A stretch of 64,000 nt of DNA from a virus: positions 1 to 64,000 of IMG/VR virus record IMGVR_UViG_3300022699_000302; one strand, given 5' to 3'. Numbering within the stretch: the first letter of the stretch is position 1; the number at the start of each line of letters is the position of its first letter. This document shows, one piece after another, positions 46,680-54,060 of this stretch. The notes under the pieces were generated by a model. It made no database searches. It saw only the letters and a list, made by a program, of their open reading frames with translations, and was not told where the DNA came from. Both the position numbers and the translations under genes were made by a program.

Positions 46680-47531
46680 ATGTTCAACCCAGACCATTGG
46701 CTGTGTCCTGGATGTGGGTCGGGACTAGAAAATATCGTAGTCGTGAATGAAGAGTACTCGTCTCAGGTTAATCTGTATGGTCCCGTATTTTCATCGAAGT
46801 CCCCGGGTACACCGCTCACTGATGAGTACATAAAAACTGTTCATGACAATGTTCATGATGAGGGCTGCATAGGCTATGAGTGTCAGGCCTGCACCCTGGA
46901 GTTCTCCAGTCTTGTTCCGGCTGAAGACTCCATCGATAAGGCTTTGTTTGAAGCTCAGAATGACCCTGCATTCGCCGAGCTCATCTCAGTGGTACCCGAA
47001 GGGTTCCGTATGCTTTTCCTCCAACCCAACGGATCTATTTTTGCTGGTGTAAATGCACCCCTACCATCGCCAGGTGGTTGGATACACGGTGGTCCTCTGT
47101 CCTACCAAGGAACCATTGCTCCGATCGTCGAGCATGTGCCCGAGCACATGGATCAGATCACCAAGCTTTACCGTAACCACACCGAACACACCATGCTTGG
47201 AGAACGATTTCTCCACGACGACTTAGACCGGTATCTCTGGACGACGACCTACAACGAAATCGTCATCCATCAAGCGGCCAAAACGGCTGCCCTCTTCCCT
47301 CAGTCGGTGGTTAATGGCGCGCTCTACGATAGCGTGGTGGAAGCTCGCCAGAAGGTCTTGAAGTCGTTTACGTGTTACAAAGACGAGAAAACAGGGGTCA
47401 CCAAGATTGACTTCGCCGCCCCCGTAAAAGCCAAGATGCCGGAGAGCGATCATCCTCTCTCGGGATCTAAAGGGAATGAACCTTGGTGGAAGGTTCGTAG
47501 CTTAATTGAAATGAGTATGGTGACACCATGA
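46680..47531 (+). CDS. WW-tail family protein 1, with zinc-finger-like N-terminus
   Basis: 283 residues from ATG 46680 (AGGAGGTG SD), longest of the array. Two Cys pairs (CPGC at 9-12 and CQAC further on) may bind zinc. The shared core reads LFLQPNGSIFAGVNAP, and the end is EPWWKVRSLIEMSMVTP, a match to the array's terminal signature. Middle region of unknown fold with several His. It overlaps the next gene by 4 nt. Function unknown; as the leading member it might be a partner or scaffold for the rest. Confidence 0.72.
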   Translation: MFNPDHWLCPGCGSGLENIVVVNEEYSSQVNLYGPVFSSKSPGTPLTDEYIKTVHDNVHDEGCIGYECQACTLEFSSLVPAEDSIDKALFEAQNDPAFAELISVVPEGFRMLFLQPNGSIFAGVNAPLPSPGGWIHGGPLSYQGTIAPIVEHVPEHMDQITKLYRNHTEHTMLGERFLHDDLDRYLWTTTYNEIVIHQAAKTAALFPQSVVNGALYDSVVEARQKVLKSFTCYKDEKTGVTKIDFAAPVKAKMPESDHPLSGSKGNEPWWKVRSLIEMSMVTP

Positions 47532-48220
47532 AGAAACTGAACAGGCTGATCTATAAAGCGCTAACACCTTTGATGTGGGTTGTTGGAGTGATTGTCGGCG
47601 GCATGTCTTGGATCCATGCAAGGCTTTGGAGGCGCGTAGCTCAGCCCGAACTTCCCAAATCTTTTGAGCCCAAACAGTTGAAGGCTTCTTATGGGCCGAC
47701 TGCGTACTTCCAGTCGACATACACACAGTCGACATATACGCCGTTGGCGTACAAAGGAGGAGGCTTTGGCTTGGGTGCGGGCATCTTCAATGCTGCTCTC
47801 CCCCATCAAGGACTCACTGCTGCACAGATCCAGATCTCAAGATACTTTCAACTGCATCAGTCGATCTTATCGGTCCAACAATGGCTTCAGGGACTGAGTA
47901 GGCAGGGGGAGATACGGGATATTAGCTTTGGATGCGCAAAGGCTGAAGTCCTGGATGATCCGGCTTTTTCTGTCAGCACAAAGACCGAAATAAAGATTCC
48001 GATTTTTGCATCGGTAGAATCCAATAAGCAGGTCCTGGAGAGATCCCGAGTATTCTCTCTGTCCTCTCTTGTCCCGCTCAGTCAGTTCTTGACCAAAGCA
48101 CAGGCCCTCGCCGACCGTTATGTCACGATTTCACCAAAACCAGAAATTCAGCTGATCGAACGATTGTGGTGGAACAGACCACGGTTCGATGAGCTTCATC
48201 TCCAAAAGAAGGGCGCTTAG
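47528..48220 (+). CDS. WW-tail family protein 2, membrane-anchored
   Basis: 230 residues. Residues 7-30 form a transmembrane helix (ALTPLMWVVGVIVGG), followed by a Tyr/Thr/Gln-rich low-complexity stretch (FQSTYTQSTYTPLAY) and a Gly-rich segment. The rest is mixed and ends RLWWNRPRFDELHLQ. The stop codon is inside the loop of a terminator. The only array member with an obvious membrane anchor. Confidence 0.7.
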   Translation: MKKLNRLIYKALTPLMWVVGVIVGGMSWIHARLWRRVAQPELPKSFEPKQLKASYGPTAYFQSTYTQSTYTPLAYKGGGFGLGAGIFNAALPHQGLTAAQIQISRYFQLHQSILSVQQWLQGLSRQGEIRDISFGCAKAEVLDDPAFSVSTKTEIKIPIFASVESNKQVLERSRVFSLSSLVPLSQFLTKAQALADRYVTISPKPEIQLIERLWWNRPRFDELHLQKKGA

Positions 48221-48236
48221 GCGCCCTTTTCTTTTA
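48209..48236 (+). terminator. Intrinsic terminator in the array
   Basis: AAGGGCGC-TTAG-GCGCCCTT then TTCTTTTAG; the loop contains the stop codon of the upstream gene. Confidence 0.92.
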
Positions 48237-48243
48237 GTTCTAT

Positions 48244-48252
48244 GGCCTAAGA
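48244..48252 (+). promoter_or_regulatory. GGCCTAAGA element, copy 6
   Basis: Exact 9-mer on the plus strand just after the terminator and 25 nt before the start at 48278. Confidence 0.75.
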
Positions 48253-48277
48253 AGATGAGTCCTTTTTGGAGAGTCTT

Positions 48278-48727
48278 ATGCCAACATACGCTAAATCCCT
48301 AAGGCCCGTCCTTCCGATGCGAAAAGCGCTGCCTGAGTCTCGTGGGGAGCTAAGGTCTGCAGCTTGTCGGGCCTACAGGGCGTCCGATGGGTGGCTTTAT
48401 GTTTTACCGGCAGCAGATTATTTGCCTCCTGAAGTAGTTTCTCAGGCTATCGACCACGGGTTCAAGACCATCACGCTGGGAAAAGACTGTTTCAACTACT
48501 TCGACAAGGATCCGTCTGCTAGCTGGTGTTCCGGTCACGGAGGGGATTGGCCGGGATATCATGGGAAATCGGATACGTATTTTCACCGAATCTTAATTTC
48601 AAAGATCTCCGCTGTCACAGTTTTCCGTGTCGATGAATTCGGTCGTGAGTGGTGGAAATCGCCGGCTCTGCATGAGCTGAACATGGGAGCGCAGTCAGGA
48701 GGGTCTAATAGTGAAAGAGTCGAGTGA
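48278..48727 (+). CDS. WW-tail family protein 3
   Basis: 149 residues from ATG 48278 (GGAGAG SD). Core segment CRAYRASDGWLYVLPAADY, one His/Gly-rich loop (SGHGGDWPGYHG), then REWWKSPALHELNMG. About 12 residues follow the signature, more than in most members. Overlaps the next gene by 17 nt. Confidence 0.7.
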   Translation: MPTYAKSLRPVLPMRKALPESRGELRSAACRAYRASDGWLYVLPAADYLPPEVVSQAIDHGFKTITLGKDCFNYFDKDPSASWCSGHGGDWPGYHGKSDTYFHRILISKISAVTVFRVDEFGREWWKSPALHELNMGAQSGGSNSERVE

Positions 48728-49211
48728 CGTCAATACAGAGAGACAGATCAACCTAGCCCTCACCCGCATGACTTACGAATTGACAGACCTTTTGCCTCGC
48801 ACCACCTTACAGGAGTATGTGGGAGAGTTGTTTGATCGTGCGGCGTACATCTCAGTCGACGGTTCTGGAAGTGTATGGGCATGGACTGTCAAACCTCGTC
48901 TTCACACGCCTTACAATGGAGCCGTTATTTGGGATGCTCCTTTTGAAGAGGAGCCTGATGATGTCGGCTGTCACCTCGTAGGGCTTAGTACTGTCCTGGC
49001 GGGTGTCATGGCCTCGTGTCATCTTACCCCTTTTGTTTGGTTCGACGAGGGTGAGAATGCCTGGTGGATGAACGCCGACGAGGCATGCCTGGAGCTTACC
49101 CCCAATCTCACCTTCCAGGACATATTCCTGAGTCTGCTGGGTGGTCGGAAAAAGATTGAAAGAGACTGGTGGAACCACACCAGTTTCAGGGAGCTTATTC
49201 TTCATGAATAG
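48711..49211 (+). CDS. WW-tail family protein 4
   Basis: 166 residues from GTG 48711 (AGGAGGG SD). N-terminal helices, core YISVDGSGSVWAWTVKPRL, an extra WW near residue 117, then LLGGRKKIERDWWNHTSFRE at the end. A clear full-length family member: strand-turn-strand core, LLG helix and terminal signature. Confidence 0.74.
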   Translation: MKESSDVNTERQINLALTRMTYELTDLLPRTTLQEYVGELFDRAAYISVDGSGSVWAWTVKPRLHTPYNGAVIWDAPFEEEPDDVGCHLVGLSTVLAGVMASCHLTPFVWFDEGENAWWMNADEACLELTPNLTFQDIFLSLLGGRKKIERDWWNHTSFRELILHE

Positions 49212-49728
49212 CAATAACGAATTTCGTGACAAACAGGTGTTGCGACGTGCTATTATCAGGTCTTACTTCTCGAATTACTTGAGAGGTGTAGGCTCCTCAG
49301 AGTCTTTATGGCGTTCCGCTACCACTTACATCCAAGAGCGGGCGTTATCGCTGACTTCGGAGTCTGCTGCATTCATGGCGATTGATCCTTATTTCCAGTT
49401 CTACGCGTACTCAGCCAAGCCGATTTGGAGAGGGGGTGTGTTTACTCGGCCGGAGTGGCACCCGAATGGCTCTCGATGGTCGAAGATGACTTGTTTGAGT
49501 TTGAGAGGATTGTCGGCGCGTGACGCCCTTTCGGAAATGCTACTGATCGACACCCAGACCGAGGGGTGGGGCGACGGTTTCTACTGGGATCGCGCCATCA
49601 TCAGTAGAGACGAGTCTATCTCAATATTGCTCGATAGGTTGCTGGGTTTTTGCCCCGGAATTGAGTTGTCGAAGAAGGAGTGGTGGAAATTTCCCGTGAT
49701 GTCGGAACTGGTAATGCATAGGGCCTAA
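49204..49728 (+). CDS. WW-tail family protein 5
   Basis: 174 residues from ATG 49204 (AGGGAGC). Core FMAIDPYFQFYAYSAKPIW, helix ILLDRLLGFCPG, then KEWWKFPVMSELVMHRA. The N-terminal 60 residues are basic helix. Its stop codon overlaps a GGCCTAAGA element. Confidence 0.74.
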   Translation: MNSNNEFRDKQVLRRAIIRSYFSNYLRGVGSSESLWRSATTYIQERALSLTSESAAFMAIDPYFQFYAYSAKPIWRGGVFTRPEWHPNGSRWSKMTCLSLRGLSARDALSEMLLIDTQTEGWGDGFYWDRAIISRDESISILLDRLLGFCPGIELSKKEWWKFPVMSELVMHRA

Positions 49729-49730
49729 GA
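49722..49730 (+). promoter_or_regulatory. GGCCTAAGA element, copy 7
   Basis: Exact 9-mer overlapping the upstream stop, 29 nt before the start at 49760. Confidence 0.74.
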
Positions 49731-49759
49731 CAACAGAGAAACTTCAACCAGGAGAGGGT

Positions 49760-50020
49760 ATGACTGAGTTTAGTAAGACCTCAGAAGAGGCAGAGTACTT
49801 TGTGATCGCAAACAACAAGGATGAATTCTTGTTGGACAAGAACAACAAGGAATTTCCTTCAATTGTTTTCGTACGACAATTGCGTCGAGCTCATCGGTAC
49901 ACCAAACTAGAGGTGGCTGAAGCCGACGCAATCCATTTCAAGAAGGCGTTGAACCTTGCCGACATCTATGTCGTGGAGGTCAAAGAAACGATCGATTACG
50001 CGATGAGATCATGTCTATAA
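49760..50020 (+). CDS. Small protein within the array, without the WW tail
   Basis: 86 residues, CAGGAGAGGG SD. Mixed alpha/beta, Lys and Asn-rich start. It lacks the array signature. It overlaps the next ATG (50011) by 10 nt, so it is coupled to member 6. Function unknown. Confidence 0.68.
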   Translation: MTEFSKTSEEAEYFVIANNKDEFLLDKNNKEFPSIVFVRQLRRAHRYTKLEVAEADAIHFKKALNLADIYVVEVKETIDYAMRSCL

Positions 50021-50545
50021 ACAAAAAAGGGCCAACCCCCTAAGTCCTTTGCCGAACAGCTCAAGCAGGCCGAGAAGCAAAAGGTCAAATGGCTGGAGTC
50101 GGTGATCAAGAAAATGAAAGCGAAATATATAACAATGAGTAGTGGCTATCCCTTCGAAAAGTATGAACAACACAACTACCGTGTTCTCCAGGAAGATGAG
50201 GAAAAACGGGAAGACTTCTTTCAGAAGCTGTCGCACCGAACCGGATTCGAGGTTCGCGCGATCTCCTGGGTCCGAGATCGTGGGTGGGTAGCTTGGAGTT
50301 ATGACATCGAGTACGACCGATTGCCTTTTGTCGGCATCGCGTCGAATTGGAGGAAGGCAGGGGGCCGGCCGCTCTTACCTCAGGACCACAGTTCCCGTAT
50401 CTTGGATTGCCAAATCACGATGGTCCCTCCGGTCGGGGTAAACCAGGAAGAAGCGACCCTAGTTTTGCGGTATCCCCGTGACCCCAGCAGGTGGTGGATC
50501 TACCCCAGATTCGAAGAGCTGAGGACTTGCCGGCAATCGGCATAG
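50011..50545 (+). CDS. WW-tail family protein 6, needs a +1 frameshift (or carries a 1-nt deletion)
   Basis: From ATG 50011 the frame runs 10 codons to CCC TAA (50038-50043). In the +1 frame it continues with AAG TCC TTT through 50545 as a helix-forming, clearly coding sequence (KSFAEQLKQAEKQKVKW). A GTG at 50102 could start a shorter 147-residue form. Core ISWVRDRGWVAWSYDIEY; end SRWWIYPRFEELRTC. CCC-stop is a known +1 slip context in phage PSA. A lost C in the C5 run is the simple alternative. Confidence 0.6.
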
Positions 50546-50568
50546 ACTTATTCATTCATTTCTATTTC

Positions 50569-50591
50569 GAAGCGCGGACGAACCGCGCTTC
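50569..50591 (+). terminator. Intrinsic terminator in the array
   Basis: GAAGCGCGG-ACGAA-CCGCGCTTC followed by TTTCATT. Confidence 0.85.
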
Positions 50592-50609
50592 TTTCATTGG
50601 GGAGGAGTT

Positions 50610-51110
50610 ATGGAAGAAGACGCTGAAGCATCGAATGAGAATCTTCCTGATATTCTAGAAGAACTAGAGCTGCTCGATGCCACAGAGGACGCCCAGGAGG
50701 CTCACGGAATCCCTCCGACGGTCGAATACCCTTTCAGGTTACTGAAGAGGTCCGCTGAAGCACGAGCCGAGCTCTTCGCTATGATCGAGGAAAGATCCTC
50801 GCTAAAAGGTCCGTTCAAGTGTGTGGTCTATCAGCCCACCCTCAGGTCATGGATTACAACCACTGGGATGGTTGAGTTTGAGGGTAAAGCGTGGTTTTGG
50901 GCACGGGGTAAAAACGGAAACCGGTTATACGGCAATACCAAGGACCTGGTGAGTCTTCGGTTGGATGTGGTTCTTCTGTCAGATCTGGACAAAAAGCTCA
51001 GCTTCCAGAATCGAATCATTATCAACGACCGATTCAATCGGTTTTCCCGGCGGGAGTGGTGGAAGGAGGCCCGCATGGCTGAGATGAGGATGGTGAACCA
51101 TGGCGACTAA
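50610..51110 (+). CDS. WW-tail family protein 7
   Basis: 166 residues, GGGGAGGAG SD. The first 35 residues are very acidic (a feature of its own), the core is CVVYQPTLRSWITTTGMVEF, and the end is RREWWKEARMAEMRM. Starts a new run of genes after the terminator. Confidence 0.72.
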   Translation: MEEDAEASNENLPDILEELELLDATEDAQEAHGIPPTVEYPFRLLKRSAEARAELFAMIEERSSLKGPFKCVVYQPTLRSWITTTGMVEFEGKAWFWARGKNGNRLYGNTKDLVSLRLDVVLLSDLDKKLSFQNRIIINDRFNRFSRREWWKEARMAEMRMVNHGD

Positions 51111-51588
51111 TGATTCAACCCAGACCTATCAGGCCTGGTACATCGGATACAAACCCGACGGAACCAATTCGCCTCCTGCATATGCAGGGATAAATAACTC
51201 TTGGACTATGGTGCTGAACTACGAAAGGGTGAAATCGGATCCCGAGTATCGGAATAGGGTGCTTAAGACTATTCTCAACGATAAGGGGTGGGAAAACAGT
51301 CAATGCATATTTCTTGGGCGGAAACGCAGCGGCGTCTGGATGGTTTATTCTTATCCGACCCGGTGGAGCTCTTATTTCCAGAACTGGCTTCTGGACGAGG
51401 ATCGTGGAGCTTCTATCCCTCTAAGCGATCATAGATCTCGTCCTCTGGCTGAATTTGGTATCGACCTAATTACTGACAAAGATCTTAGCGAGCCCGTAGG
51501 TATGTACCTCCTGGGCGAGGATCTGCCTATTCAGCGGGACTGGTGGAAGCACAGTAGATTCAAGGAGATCACATGCAGGAAGGCTTAA
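51100..51588 (+). CDS. WW-tail family protein 8
   Basis: 162 residues, starting inside the end of member 7 (11-nt overlap). Core CIFLGRKRSGVWMVYSYPTR, then QRDWWKHSRFKEITCRKA. The N-terminus is polar and aromatic-rich. Coupled translation with both neighbours. Confidence 0.72.
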   Translation: MATNDSTQTYQAWYIGYKPDGTNSPPAYAGINNSWTMVLNYERVKSDPEYRNRVLKTILNDKGWENSQCIFLGRKRSGVWMVYSYPTRWSSYFQNWLLDEDRGASIPLSDHRSRPLAEFGIDLITDKDLSEPVGMYLLGEDLPIQRDWWKHSRFKEITCRKA

Positions 51589-52103
51589 CGCCTCAGACGA
51601 TCCAGGATCGTCTTTCCATAATTGCGAACTCTATTTTTGAGCTAACTAAGGACGTAGCGGTCTGGGAGATCGACCAGATCTACCACGTCGTTTATTTTCC
51701 GAATTCATGGGCTCGTTTTCTGGTCTTTCCTCTCAATACCGAATTTACTTTTCTTGACGACAAATACCTGGTCATGTGGCCGACTAGTGTGACTCCGATT
51801 CCGACATGTCGAACCGACGGTCTTAGTTTAGAAAGCTCCCTCAAGAAAGCAGGTCTTTGTCCTGATCAGGAGCGTGGGTTGATCTTCAACATGGTGCTCT
51901 CAGATCCTGAGGGTTCATGGGAGCATGAGGCCCGAGCCACAAGGTCTTCCTATGTCATTGATCATATCGGCGGCGGTGTGCTGATCCCTTTGTCTCGATG
52001 GCTTGCGCGCCCCGCCCTCATGAAAACATGGTGGAACCACTCCCACCTGAAGGAGCTTGTGTTGGTCGCATCGGATGCAGCCAAGGAGGAGATCAGTGAC
52101 TGA
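51573..52103 (+). CDS. WW-tail family protein 9
   Basis: 176 residues, overlapping member 8 by 16 nt. Core VVYFPNSWARFLVFPLNTEF; end KTWWNHSHLKELVLV, followed by 12 acidic residues. The codons after the signature also form the leader hairpin of the next gene, which may explain the longer tail. Confidence 0.72.
   Translation: MQEGLTPQTIQDRLSIIANSIFELTKDVAVWEIDQIYHVVYFPNSWARFLVFPLNTEFTFLDDKYLVMWPTSVTPIPTCRTDGLSLESSLKKAGLCPDQERGLIFNMVLSDPEGSWEHEARATRSSYVIDHIGGGVLIPLSRWLARPALMKTWWNHSHLKELVLVASDAAKEEISD
52062..52084 (+). promoter_or_regulatory. Recurrent leader hairpin, copy 6 (inside a coding end)
   Basis: TTGGTCGC/GCAGCCAA stem with loop ATCGGAT, 11 nt before the GTG at 52096, encoded within the last codons of member 9. 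Confidence 0.7.
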
Positions 52104-52539
52104 ATTCTACATGAAGCAAATCATTGTTGCTGAGGACTGGAACGAGCTCCTCAACTCAGCAATGAGGCAAATCATCGCTAAGGCAGTTCGCAAGGCAGTT
52201 CGCAAGGCGAGGCCTCCTCACATAGATACATCCCAGCTGTGGCTGTATTGGTCTGCTCTTTTGAATGAGTGGTGTGTGGCGACACAAAAACTGGAGTTCG
52301 ACTCATATACAGCGGTCTGGAACTGGCCCAAGGACATGCCACCGTACGACCGGAGGCACCGGAGGCAATGGAGAGCTTTCCTGCTGAAGACCTTCAATAT
52401 TCATTTGAAGCTCGAAAACATAGATCTCCCTGATAACCAAGAGGAGCGGATCATCCCGTTGACCAGCACCCCCGATCTTCGGGATTGGTGGAATCACTCC
52501 CACCTGAAAGAGCTGCAATGTGTAAGGAGCAGATCATGA
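52096..52539 (+). CDS. WW-tail family protein 10
   Basis: 147 residues from GTG 52096 (AAGGAGGAG SD); ATG 52111 is the alternative. A 12-bp tandem duplication (52181-52210) encodes KAVRKAVRKA. Core LWLYWSALLNEWCVATQKL; end RDWWNHSHLKELQC, nearly the same signature as member 9, suggesting recent duplication of that end. Confidence 0.72.
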   Translation: MTEFYMKQIIVAEDWNELLNSAMRQIIAKAVRKAVRKARPPHIDTSQLWLYWSALLNEWCVATQKLEFDSYTAVWNWPKDMPPYDRRHRRQWRAFLLKTFNIHLKLENIDLPDNQEERIIPLTSTPDLRDWWNHSHLKELQCVRSRS

Positions 52540-53057
52540 CACCAGAACAACAATTGAAATCTATCAGAAAGCAGTTATTCGCTCTCATCAAGGGTTGGTT
52601 CGACGATTACGGTATACCTCTTTCCACGGTATTGATCTGGGAAGAAGCGGTCGAGGCTGCGTATCAGAGGAAACTCGACGGAAATAAGATACAAGCGGTA
52701 ACCATTGAAAAGTACGAAATCGAGGATACCTGGTCGGTCTATGCACACCTGGTCGATCCGATCTACTCGAAGGAGGGGGAGGAGTGGCTCCCCTTCCACG
52801 AAAGTGACTTCCCTTCGATGATCGCCAAGTGTGTGGAGATCACCGCAGTCAACAAGACTCTTTCCGAATGCTTTCTTGACCTTCAGATCGACCCCAACGC
52901 ACATGCCACGCCGGAAAAGGCAGTGATCTATCGCGGTAGGAGCGAGAGTACTTTTGAGCTTCTGGTCGAAAGGATGCTGGGTCTTGCTGCCTCCGGAACC
53001 TTGGTCGAGCCGGATTGGTGGAACCACCGCAGGTTTAAGGAGTTGATCCATGGATAA
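52536..53057 (+). CDS. WW-tail family protein 11
   Basis: 173 residues, ATGA overlap with the previous stop and AAGGAG SD. Core VTIEKYEIEDTWSVYAHLVD, helix FELLVERMLGLAASG, end PDWWNHRRFKELIHG; together the clearest copy of the C-terminal module. Acidic on balance. Confidence 0.75.
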   Translation: MTPEQQLKSIRKQLFALIKGWFDDYGIPLSTVLIWEEAVEAAYQRKLDGNKIQAVTIEKYEIEDTWSVYAHLVDPIYSKEGEEWLPFHESDFPSMIAKCVEITAVNKTLSECFLDLQIDPNAHATPEKAVIYRGRSESTFELLVERMLGLAASGTLVEPDWWNHRRFKELIHG

Positions 53058-53562
53058 AGTCCCTCAACCCAGTGCGTACTGGGTGTTGTACGATCAATTG
53101 AAGCGAAATGTAGATAGTCTCAACGAGCTCGATATCTGGGACCATGCCAAGAAGGACTCCGAAGCTGGTTACGTCTCGGGGTTCAACCCTTTAGCAATAG
53201 CCATGGATCGTGATTTTTCGTGCTATGCCTACGCAGACACGCCGAGATTCACGGACTACGTAGGCATATGGTACCCCCTGGCACTTGCGAAGCCTCCAGC
53301 GCTCGGACGGTATATCAAGTTGGCTGAGCTCACCAATCAGCTTTTGAGAGCAGTAGCGGATCTCGGCTGGAGTGGTGATCTCCGCATACCCTTTCCGCAA
53401 AACGCGGTTGTTCTCTGTGGGGAGCAATCTCCAACACTTGATCTGCTGTTGAAGCGTGCGTTCGGCATAAGAAGCGGTCCTGCTGAAGCAACTCCGGGAC
53501 CCAGTGTTCCGAGGAAATGGTGGACCCACCACCGATTCCGATTGGAGGTCGGTCATGCATGA
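53050..53562 (+). CDS. WW-tail family protein 12
   Basis: 170 residues, overlapping member 11 by 8 nt. Core IAMDRDFSCYAYADTPRF then VGIWYP, helix LDLLLKRAFGI, a Pro-rich linker and RKWWTHHRFRLEVGHA. The signature is slightly diverged at FxEL (FRLE). Confidence 0.74.
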   Translation: MDKVPQPSAYWVLYDQLKRNVDSLNELDIWDHAKKDSEAGYVSGFNPLAIAMDRDFSCYAYADTPRFTDYVGIWYPLALAKPPALGRYIKLAELTNQLLRAVADLGWSGDLRIPFPQNAVVLCGEQSPTLDLLLKRAFGIRSGPAEATPGPSVPRKWWTHHRFRLEVGHA

Positions 53563-54016
53563 TGTTTCCCTAGCCAGCCGGAGAGCCCGTCTCGAACAGA
53601 TTTCATCAATGTTGGAGCGGATATCTCCCTGGAAGTTGGCTGATGAGAGTTTGGGAGTTTACTGCCCCTCTGGTGAAGGTGTTGCGCAGTATCTAGCCAT
53701 AGACTACGACGGGAGCGTATATACATACGAGGGAAAGCCTGTCTTCGACACAAGGGCAGGGGTTTGGATGCCCTCACAGAAACACCCAGACTGCTACACT
53801 CGGGTATCTCCCCTCTCTGACTTGGTTTGCAGCCTTCCGAAGGAGTGTCGTCTCAGCCATACATCGCCGAATCATGAGACGGTGAAACGAGCCTTTGTCA
53901 AACGGGAATCACCGTTCATCATCGCTGTACAGAATTTCCTCGGTCTTGGCGGATACGCCGAACGCGATTGGTGGAATCACTTACGGTTCGAAGAAATGAT
54001 GTTGTCTACGGCCTAA
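53555..54016 (+). CDS. WW-tail family protein 13
   Basis: 153 residues from ATG 53555 (GGAGGTC SD). Core YLAIDYDGSVYTYEGKPVF then AGVWMPS, the best example of the shared strand-turn-strand; helix IIAVQNFLGLGG and end RDWWNHLRFEEMMLSTA. Last array member; a GGCCTAAGA element covers its stop. Confidence 0.75.
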   Translation: MHDVSLASRRARLEQISSMLERISPWKLADESLGVYCPSGEGVAQYLAIDYDGSVYTYEGKPVFDTRAGVWMPSQKHPDCYTRVSPLSDLVCSLPKECRLSHTSPNHETVKRAFVKRESPFIIAVQNFLGLGGYAERDWWNHLRFEEMMLSTA

Positions 54017-54018
54017 GA
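54010..54018 (+). promoter_or_regulatory. GGCCTAAGA element, copy 8
   Basis: Exact 9-mer followed by CAATAGAG, overlapping the stop of array member 13 and 42 nt before the start at 54061. Confidence 0.75.
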
Positions 54019-54060
54019 CAATAGAGCTGATTAGCCGTTCCTAATGGAACAGGAGTTTTT

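What the first reader, a model, noticed from the sequence alone, without database searches (positions are those of the whole stretch)
46680..54016. Tandem array of 13 divergent small proteins that share one C-terminal WW signature
Seen: genes at 46680, 47528, 48278, 48711, 49204, 50011, 50610, 51100, 51573, 52096, 52536, 53050 and 53555 all end in a motif close to [RK]xWW(N/K/T)xxxFxEL plus 1-15 residues (e.g. RDWWNHLRFEEM, PDWWNHRRFKEL, KEWWKFPVMSEL, REWWKEARMAEM). The rest of each sequence is highly diverged. The genes are adjacent and often overlap, and only one neighbour (49760) lacks the motif. Inference: a common C-terminal tag directs a set of variable proteins to one partner or place. 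Candidates are packaging into the head like T4 internal proteins, targeting to a phage compartment, or binding a shared receptor such as a host factor. Variable bodies with a fixed tag would suit an arsenal of anti-host or anti-defence effectors. I know of no described family with this layout.
Basis: partly seen in the sequence, partly recalled or inferred. Interest (0 to 1): 0.93.

Follow-up and report, generated by a model that had tools for sequence, protein, structure and literature searches.

The report
Phage proteins sharing a WW tail
One uncultured large bacterial virus carries 17 small, otherwise very different proteins that all end in the same short double-tryptophan peptide, which looks like a docking tag for a single unknown partner and has been found in no other virus searched.

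Summary
The 13 genes in the window end in R-[DEK]-W-W-[NK]-x-x-x-[FL]-x-E-[LM]-x-[LM], 11-23 residues before the stop. Four more lie on the opposite strand at 83.8-87.2 kb of the same 194-kb phage record, making 17. A 20-residue tail profile recovers every member at rank 1 in leave-one-out tests. Among 16,400 ORF ends of this genome and six relatives it hits exactly these 17, with no close runner-up. Codon choice at the motif follows genome usage, so the constraint is on protein, not DNA. Bodies are mostly unrelated by sequence: five (D, E, K, L, M) are clear paralogues with a small beta module resembling phrog_1972; one has two CxxC pairs, one a probable membrane helix; the rest match nothing. 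A phage promoter-like motif ties both clusters to the small-gene operons, not the virion block. No homologue turned up in IMG/VR, GTDB genomes, phage records, PHROGs, Pfam or PDB. Best reading: a lineage-specific set of accessory proteins, probably made before the virion genes, carrying a common C-terminal docking peptide. The partner is unknown. Packaging into the head is possible but has no positive evidence.

The parts
46680..47531 (+). gene A, 283 aa; two CxxC pairs (Zn-ribbon-like, below cut-off); tail EPWWKVRSLIEMSM
47528..48220 (+). gene B, 230 aa; probable N-terminal membrane helix (mean KD 1.73); tail RLWWNRPRFDELHL
48278..48727 (+). gene C, 149 aa; tail REWWKSPALHELNM
48711..49211 (+). 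gene D, 166 aa, GTG start; phrog_1972-like module; tail RDWWNHTSFRELIL
49204..49728 (+). gene E, 174 aa; body paralogous to D, K, L, M; tail KEWWKFPVMSELVM
49760..50020 (+). gene X, 86 aa, neighbour without the tail
50021..50545 (+). gene F open frame (listed start 50102 GTG, 147 aa); true start uncertain; tail SRWWIYPRFEELRT
50610..51110 (+). gene G, 166 aa; tail REWWKEARMAEMRM
51100..51588 (+). gene H, 162 aa; tail RDWWKHSRFKEITC
51573..52103 (+). gene I, 176 aa; tail KTWWNHSHLKELVL
52096..52539 (+). gene J, 147 aa, GTG start; tail RDWWNHSHLKELQC
52536..53057 (+). gene K, 173 aa; D/E/K/L/M body family; tail PDWWNHRRFKELIH
53050..53562 (+). gene L, 170 aa; D/E/K/L/M body family; Pro/Ala/Gly-rich linker; irregular tail RKWWTHHRFRLEVG
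53555..54016 (+). gene M, 153 aa; phrog_1972-like module at residues 44-75 (E 9.8e-6); tail RDWWNHLRFEEMML
48244..48259 (+). promoter-like motif GGCCTAAGAAGATGAG, 34 bp before gene C
49722..49737 (+). promoter-like motif GGCCTAAGACAACAGA, 38 bp before gene X
54010..54025 (+). promoter-like motif GGCCTAAGACAATAGA at the end of gene M, before the next operon
48207..48230 (+). terminator-like hairpin after gene B, 10 pairs
50569..50591 (+). terminator-like hairpin between F and G, 9 pairs

Best explanation
A lineage-specific, largely tandem set of 17 small accessory proteins of a large phage that has its own fused bacterial-type RNA polymerase. Each has a fast-diverging body and a conserved C-terminal peptide, R-[DEK]-W-W-[NK]-(H)-x-x-[FL]-x-E-[LM]-x-[LM]; in the one body family where it can be measured, the stretch joining body and tail varies in length. 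Shown: the 17 members, protein-level constraint, tail conserved more than body, two clusters on opposite strands, and a shared promoter-like motif class. Inferred: the peptide folds as a short helix and docks all the proteins onto one common partner, phage- or host-made, while the bodies have diversified to do different jobs, probably host-directed and before virion genes are made. The partner and the jobs are not identified.
For: Leave-one-out: 17/17 tails at rank 1, bodies mostly unrecovered. The tail profile separates exactly 17 ORF ends of 16,400 (worst member E 2.6e-4, next best 0.12). Synonymous codons in the motif match genome usage (170 same-codon pairs, 163 expected, p = 0.24), so neither a DNA element nor very recent copying explains it. 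Within the one confirmed body family, tails are 42% and bodies 21% identical, and the stretch before WW varies in length, Pro/Ala/Gly-rich in L. Bodies differ in kind: CxxC pairs in A, a probable membrane helix in B, a phrog_1972-like module in M, D and L. The distance from WW to the stop varies (11-23 residues), so a carboxy-terminal carboxylate is not what is read. GGCCTAAG occurs 30 times (3.7 expected), 22 of them intergenic; the only three plus-strand sites lie at the array and its 3' edge, and one at 88746 precedes the second cluster.
Against: No partner has been identified and there is no expression, structure or binding evidence. AlphaFold2 models have low confidence, so the tail could still be a folded part of a degenerate common domain. 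'Early' rests on a motif, not on a time course; genes A-B and G have no recognised promoter of their own. No second genome carries the family, so conservation across species cannot be tested.
Confidence: 0.5

Rival explanations
1. The tail is not a tag but the best-conserved part of one rapidly diverging domain family; all 17 are paralogues whose bodies have drifted beyond recognition, with WW as a core helix of the fold.
For: Five bodies are demonstrably paralogous. The genes are adjacent and similar in size. By eye most bodies have two beta strands followed by [P/E]-x-[aromatic] and a W. AlphaFold2 gives beta strands at 46-73 of M, weakly.
Against: The hairpin pattern is not significant in the other 12 bodies (Fisher p = 0.22; no better than control genes, p = 0.37). 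Body kinds differ (A with CxxC pairs and 283 aa, B with a membrane helix). Variable, in one case Pro/Ala/Gly-rich, linkers precede the tail.
Confidence: 0.22
2. Capsid-targeting peptide: the tail brings the proteins into the prohead, and [FLM]-x-E may be cut by the head protease, as for T4 internal proteins and giant-phage ejection proteins.
For: E is present in 15 of 17 and D in one, two residues after a conserved F/L/M. Head proteases of T4, phiKZ and SPN3US all cut after a glutamate, SPN3US at A-x-E (PMC5694885). Internal proteins are a known case of variable bodies with a shared short terminal peptide.
Against: T4's targeting peptide is N-terminal, and the processed SPN3US head proteins described have N-terminal propeptides (PMC5694885). 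A cut after E would leave WW on the protein. The clusters are far from the head genes and use the small-gene promoter class. No head protease was recognised among the proteins scanned.
Confidence: 0.13
3. Substrate tag for the membrane-anchored BCS1-like AAA ATPase encoded between WW genes P and Q (record 84228-85613), which would unfold or translocate the tagged proteins.
For: Gene order P-AAA-Q with gaps of 2 and 4 bp. The best PDB relatives are mitochondrial BCS1 (E 3e-27), which by general knowledge moves folded protein across a membrane.
Against: Similar AAA proteins occur in 160 phage records and weakly in 3 of 24 relatives, none known to have the tail. Cluster 1 has no AAA gene. Adjacency only.
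Confidence: 0.06
4. The tail is a membrane-targeting amphipathic helix.
For: Two tryptophans and several hydrophobic residues near the C terminus.
Against: Helical moment is low and scattered (0.02-0.36) and net charge runs from -3 to +5. Strict conservation of W, W and E points to a specific site.
Confidence: 0.04
5. Conservation reflects a nucleic-acid element, such as a ribosome-binding site for the next gene embedded in the codons for xEL.
For: In D, H and K the codons for x-E (AGGGAG, AAGGAG) double as a Shine-Dalgarno-like site of the overlapping next gene.
Against: Synonymous codons follow genome usage. Tails without a close downstream gene (B, F, M) are equally conserved. It cannot explain WW.
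Confidence: 0.02

Closest known systems
T4 internal proteins (IPI-III, Alt) with the capsid-targeting sequence
   Same: Several small phage proteins share one short terminal peptide that sends them to one place; conserved Glu in a protease-like motif.
   Different: T4's peptide is at the N terminus and cleaved off (PMC5694885); here it is C-terminal, on 17 genes in two clusters outside the head region, in the small-gene promoter class.
phiKZ/SPN3US ejection-protein paralogue families
   Same: Expanded paralogues in large phages with multisubunit RNA polymerases; some share identical N-terminal segments (gp53/gp54, PMC5694885).
   Different: Long N-terminal propeptides on structural proteins; no C-terminal WW tail known to me; no profile match here.
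phrog_1972 (small phage proteins of unknown function)
   Same: M, D and L match about 30 residues of its profile (E 9.8e-6 by hmmscan of M; 1.1e-6, 0.003 and 0.03 in the genome search for M, D and L).
   Different: Covers only the beta module, not the tail; the other members do not match convincingly.
F-x-[DR]-E-L-x-K-[IL]-A N-terminal peptide shared by several proteins in related phages
   Same: Short terminal peptide shared by several, partly adjacent, otherwise different proteins.
   Different: N-terminal, other sequence, and found in relatives rather than in this phage.

Membership tests
T4-type internal head proteins | short N-terminal capsid-targeting peptide | tested here: not met
   no shared N-terminal peptide among the 17; the shared element is C-terminal
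T4-type internal head proteins | present in the virion and processed by the prohead protease | not testable with these tools
   needs mass spectrometry; [FLM]-x-E is only compatible with cleavage
phrog_1972 | profile match | tested here: inconclusive
   partial match of M, D and L over about 30 of 160 positions; the one related-phage match carries no WW tail
any Pfam, PHROG or PDB family covering the tail | profile match across the WW region | tested here: not met
ssrA-like C-terminal degron | fixed residues at the extreme C terminus | tested here: not met
   11-23 variable residues follow WW and final residues differ
membrane-targeting amphipathic helix | high hydrophobic moment and basic face | tested here: not met
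   moment 0.02-0.36, net charge -3 to +5

The most novel reading that the evidence does not exclude
A hub-and-tag system: one receptor in the infected cell (phage-made scaffold or polymerase, or a host machine) collects a modular set of at least 17 largely unrelated effectors through one C-terminal peptide, so that new effectors can be added by acquiring the tail.
Probability: 0.3. Interest if true: 0.85.

Novelty: new variant of a known kind. Interest (0 to 1): 0.62.

Why it matters
Large phages carry many small genes of unknown purpose that cannot be grouped by sequence. A shared docking peptide would give one handle on 17 of them at once: pulling down the tail's partner would say where the whole set acts. 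If the tags are modular it would be a way for a phage to assemble an effector set, comparable to but different from T4's capsid-targeting peptide.

Tried and rejected
Searches for relatives that found none: IMG/VR with the helicase, terminase, 1126-aa protein and three WW alignments or patterns (none of the 22 pattern hits was a matching gene end); GTDB genomes; plasmids; phage records with K, M and the tail (only chance-level or short module matches); the A1 profile in 50 related IMG/VR records plus Arash and Vibrio D69. A1 itself had no stretch conserved enough for a collection scan. Ab initio search for other shared C-terminal tails in six relatives gave nothing clearly above control. A common beta-hairpin in all bodies, convincing by eye, failed statistically. 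AlphaFold2 on K and M was too poor to use for a fold search. Nucleic-acid element, degron, membrane helix and AAA-tag readings were considered and ranked low. Literature searches found no precedent, within an open-access library only.

Full report
What the window is. The window is bases 1-64000 of a 194,114-base virus record. The phage has a fused beta-beta' RNA polymerase of 2034 aa at 149472-155576, a terminase at 159597-161204, a family A DNA polymerase and a glutaminyl/glutamyl-type tRNA synthetase and a major head protein at 172079-173224. Named relatives are distant: Vibrio phages D69, D148 and D181 and Salmonella phage Arash, 29-30% identical in the polymerase. IMG/VR holds many relatives of up to about 205 kb at about 30-35% and two short contigs at 65%.

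The observation. All 13 genes are real open frames ending in the motif. One start is wrong: 50011 is out of frame with the WW frame of gene F. Four more tail genes, N, O, P and Q, lie on the minus strand at 87165-83762 of the record. The position profile is R10/17, D/E/K, W17, W17, N/K, H8, P6, R7, F9/L6/M2, any, E15, L11/M4, any, M6/L6. Chance is excluded: 12 pattern matches in the window against 0.07 expected; 15 in the record against 0 for the reversed control, while related records have 0 to 2.

Tail versus body. Tail-only profiles recover each held-out member at rank 1 among 331 sequences; body-only profiles do so for three, one of them weakly. D, E, K, L and M form one body family, with 21% identity in the body and 42% in the tail. 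M, D and L contain a roughly 30-residue module matching phrog_1972, a family of unknown function. Gene A has two CxxC pairs and gene B a probable membrane helix. A shared hairpin in the other 12 bodies is suggested by eye but not supported. So the set is a mix of one real paralogue family and members whose bodies cannot be related by sequence; whether those bodies diverged or were joined to the tail cannot be decided here.

Level of conservation. Codons at conserved positions are as mixed as genome usage predicts (170 same-codon pairs, 163 expected, p = 0.24), so the constraint acts on protein and the copies are not recent. In three gene pairs the codons for x-E also look like the next gene's ribosome-binding site, which is a side effect, not the cause.

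Regulation. GGCCTAAG, extended on many sites to GGCCTAAGAnnATAGA, occurs 30 times against 3.7 expected, 22 times in the 7.8% of the record that is intergenic. Twenty-seven sites are on the minus strand, many of them upstream of small-gene operons, including one upstream of the second WW cluster. The only three plus-strand sites are before gene C, before gene X and at the end of gene M. None precedes plus-strand virion genes. Terminator-like hairpins follow B and F. I infer that the WW genes are expressed with the small-gene class, likely before the virion genes; this has not been measured.

Distribution. The tail profile finds exactly 17 of 16,400 ORF ends in this genome and six relatives, with a gap from E 2.6e-4 to 0.12. 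No relative was found in IMG/VR, GTDB genomes, plasmids or phage records, or in Pfam, PHROGs or PDB. The limits matter: pattern-based scans find only near relatives, and metagenome contigs were not searched.

Mechanism. The best-supported reading is a docking peptide on diversified accessory proteins (0.5). The main rival is a conserved core of a single fast-evolving domain (0.22). Capsid targeting (0.13) is compatible with the [FLM]-x-E signature, since head proteases cut after Glu (PMC5694885), but the position, the promoter class and the lack of a recognised protease count against it. A BCS1-like AAA gene sits between P and Q, but such genes are common in phages without the tail.

Verdict. 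A genuine, unusual feature, apparently confined to one lineage among everything searched; a tag is likely, its partner unknown. Scored 0.62; new variant of a known kind (sets of phage proteins with a shared terminal peptide), with a 0.3 chance of being a new kind of effector hub.

Noticed in passing
window 50011-50120: The WW frame of gene F is open and looks coding upstream of any start codon; an ATG at 50011 overlapping gene X runs 10 codons to CCC TAA in another frame. A +1 slip at CCC-U would join them: candidate programmed frameshift, or an assembly error.
   Followed up: partly
record-wide, e.g. window 12467, 22245, 41965, 46648, 52064; record 105055, 109857, 186675: About 25 dispersed copies of a 23-bp palindrome, TTGGTTGCATCGGATGCAACCAA, some in coding DNA, several immediately upstream of ribosome-binding sites (genes A, J, 109890). 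Operator-, centromere- or RNA-hairpin-like; function unknown.
   Followed up: partly
record-wide; window 14665, 22959, 29225, 35396, 41958, 48244, 49722, 54010, 61521: Promoter-like motif TnnGGCCTAAGAnnAT[AG][GA]A, 30 sites, mostly intergenic, 27 on the minus strand; absent from plus-strand virion genes.
   Followed up: partly
related records G045 (75082-77215), G046 (11584, 81908, 82987), G048 (134132, 170564, 174693), G015 (54857, 59340), G011 (79197): Several proteins, some of them neighbours, share an N-terminal peptide F[LARM][DR]EL.K[IL]A in related phages; possibly a virion- or core-targeting tag.
   Followed up: partly
record 149472-155576 (L005:5472-11576): Single 2034-aa protein with RNA polymerase domains of both large subunits, shared with a large group of big phages; a second, 1171-aa protein at 177237-180752 has a partial match to a 'structural protein' of phage Arash.
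   Followed up: partly
record 84228-85613 (L002:228-1613, minus): BCS1-like AAA ATPase with a probable N-terminal membrane helix, tightly between WW genes P and Q.
   Followed up: yes
record 166230-169055 (L006:2230-5055): 941-aa protein with Hint/intein and LAGLIDADG domains close to the head genes.
   Followed up: no
record 88763-90364: Full-length glutaminyl/glutamyl-type tRNA synthetase, while ARAGORN finds no tRNA gene in the window.
   Followed up: no
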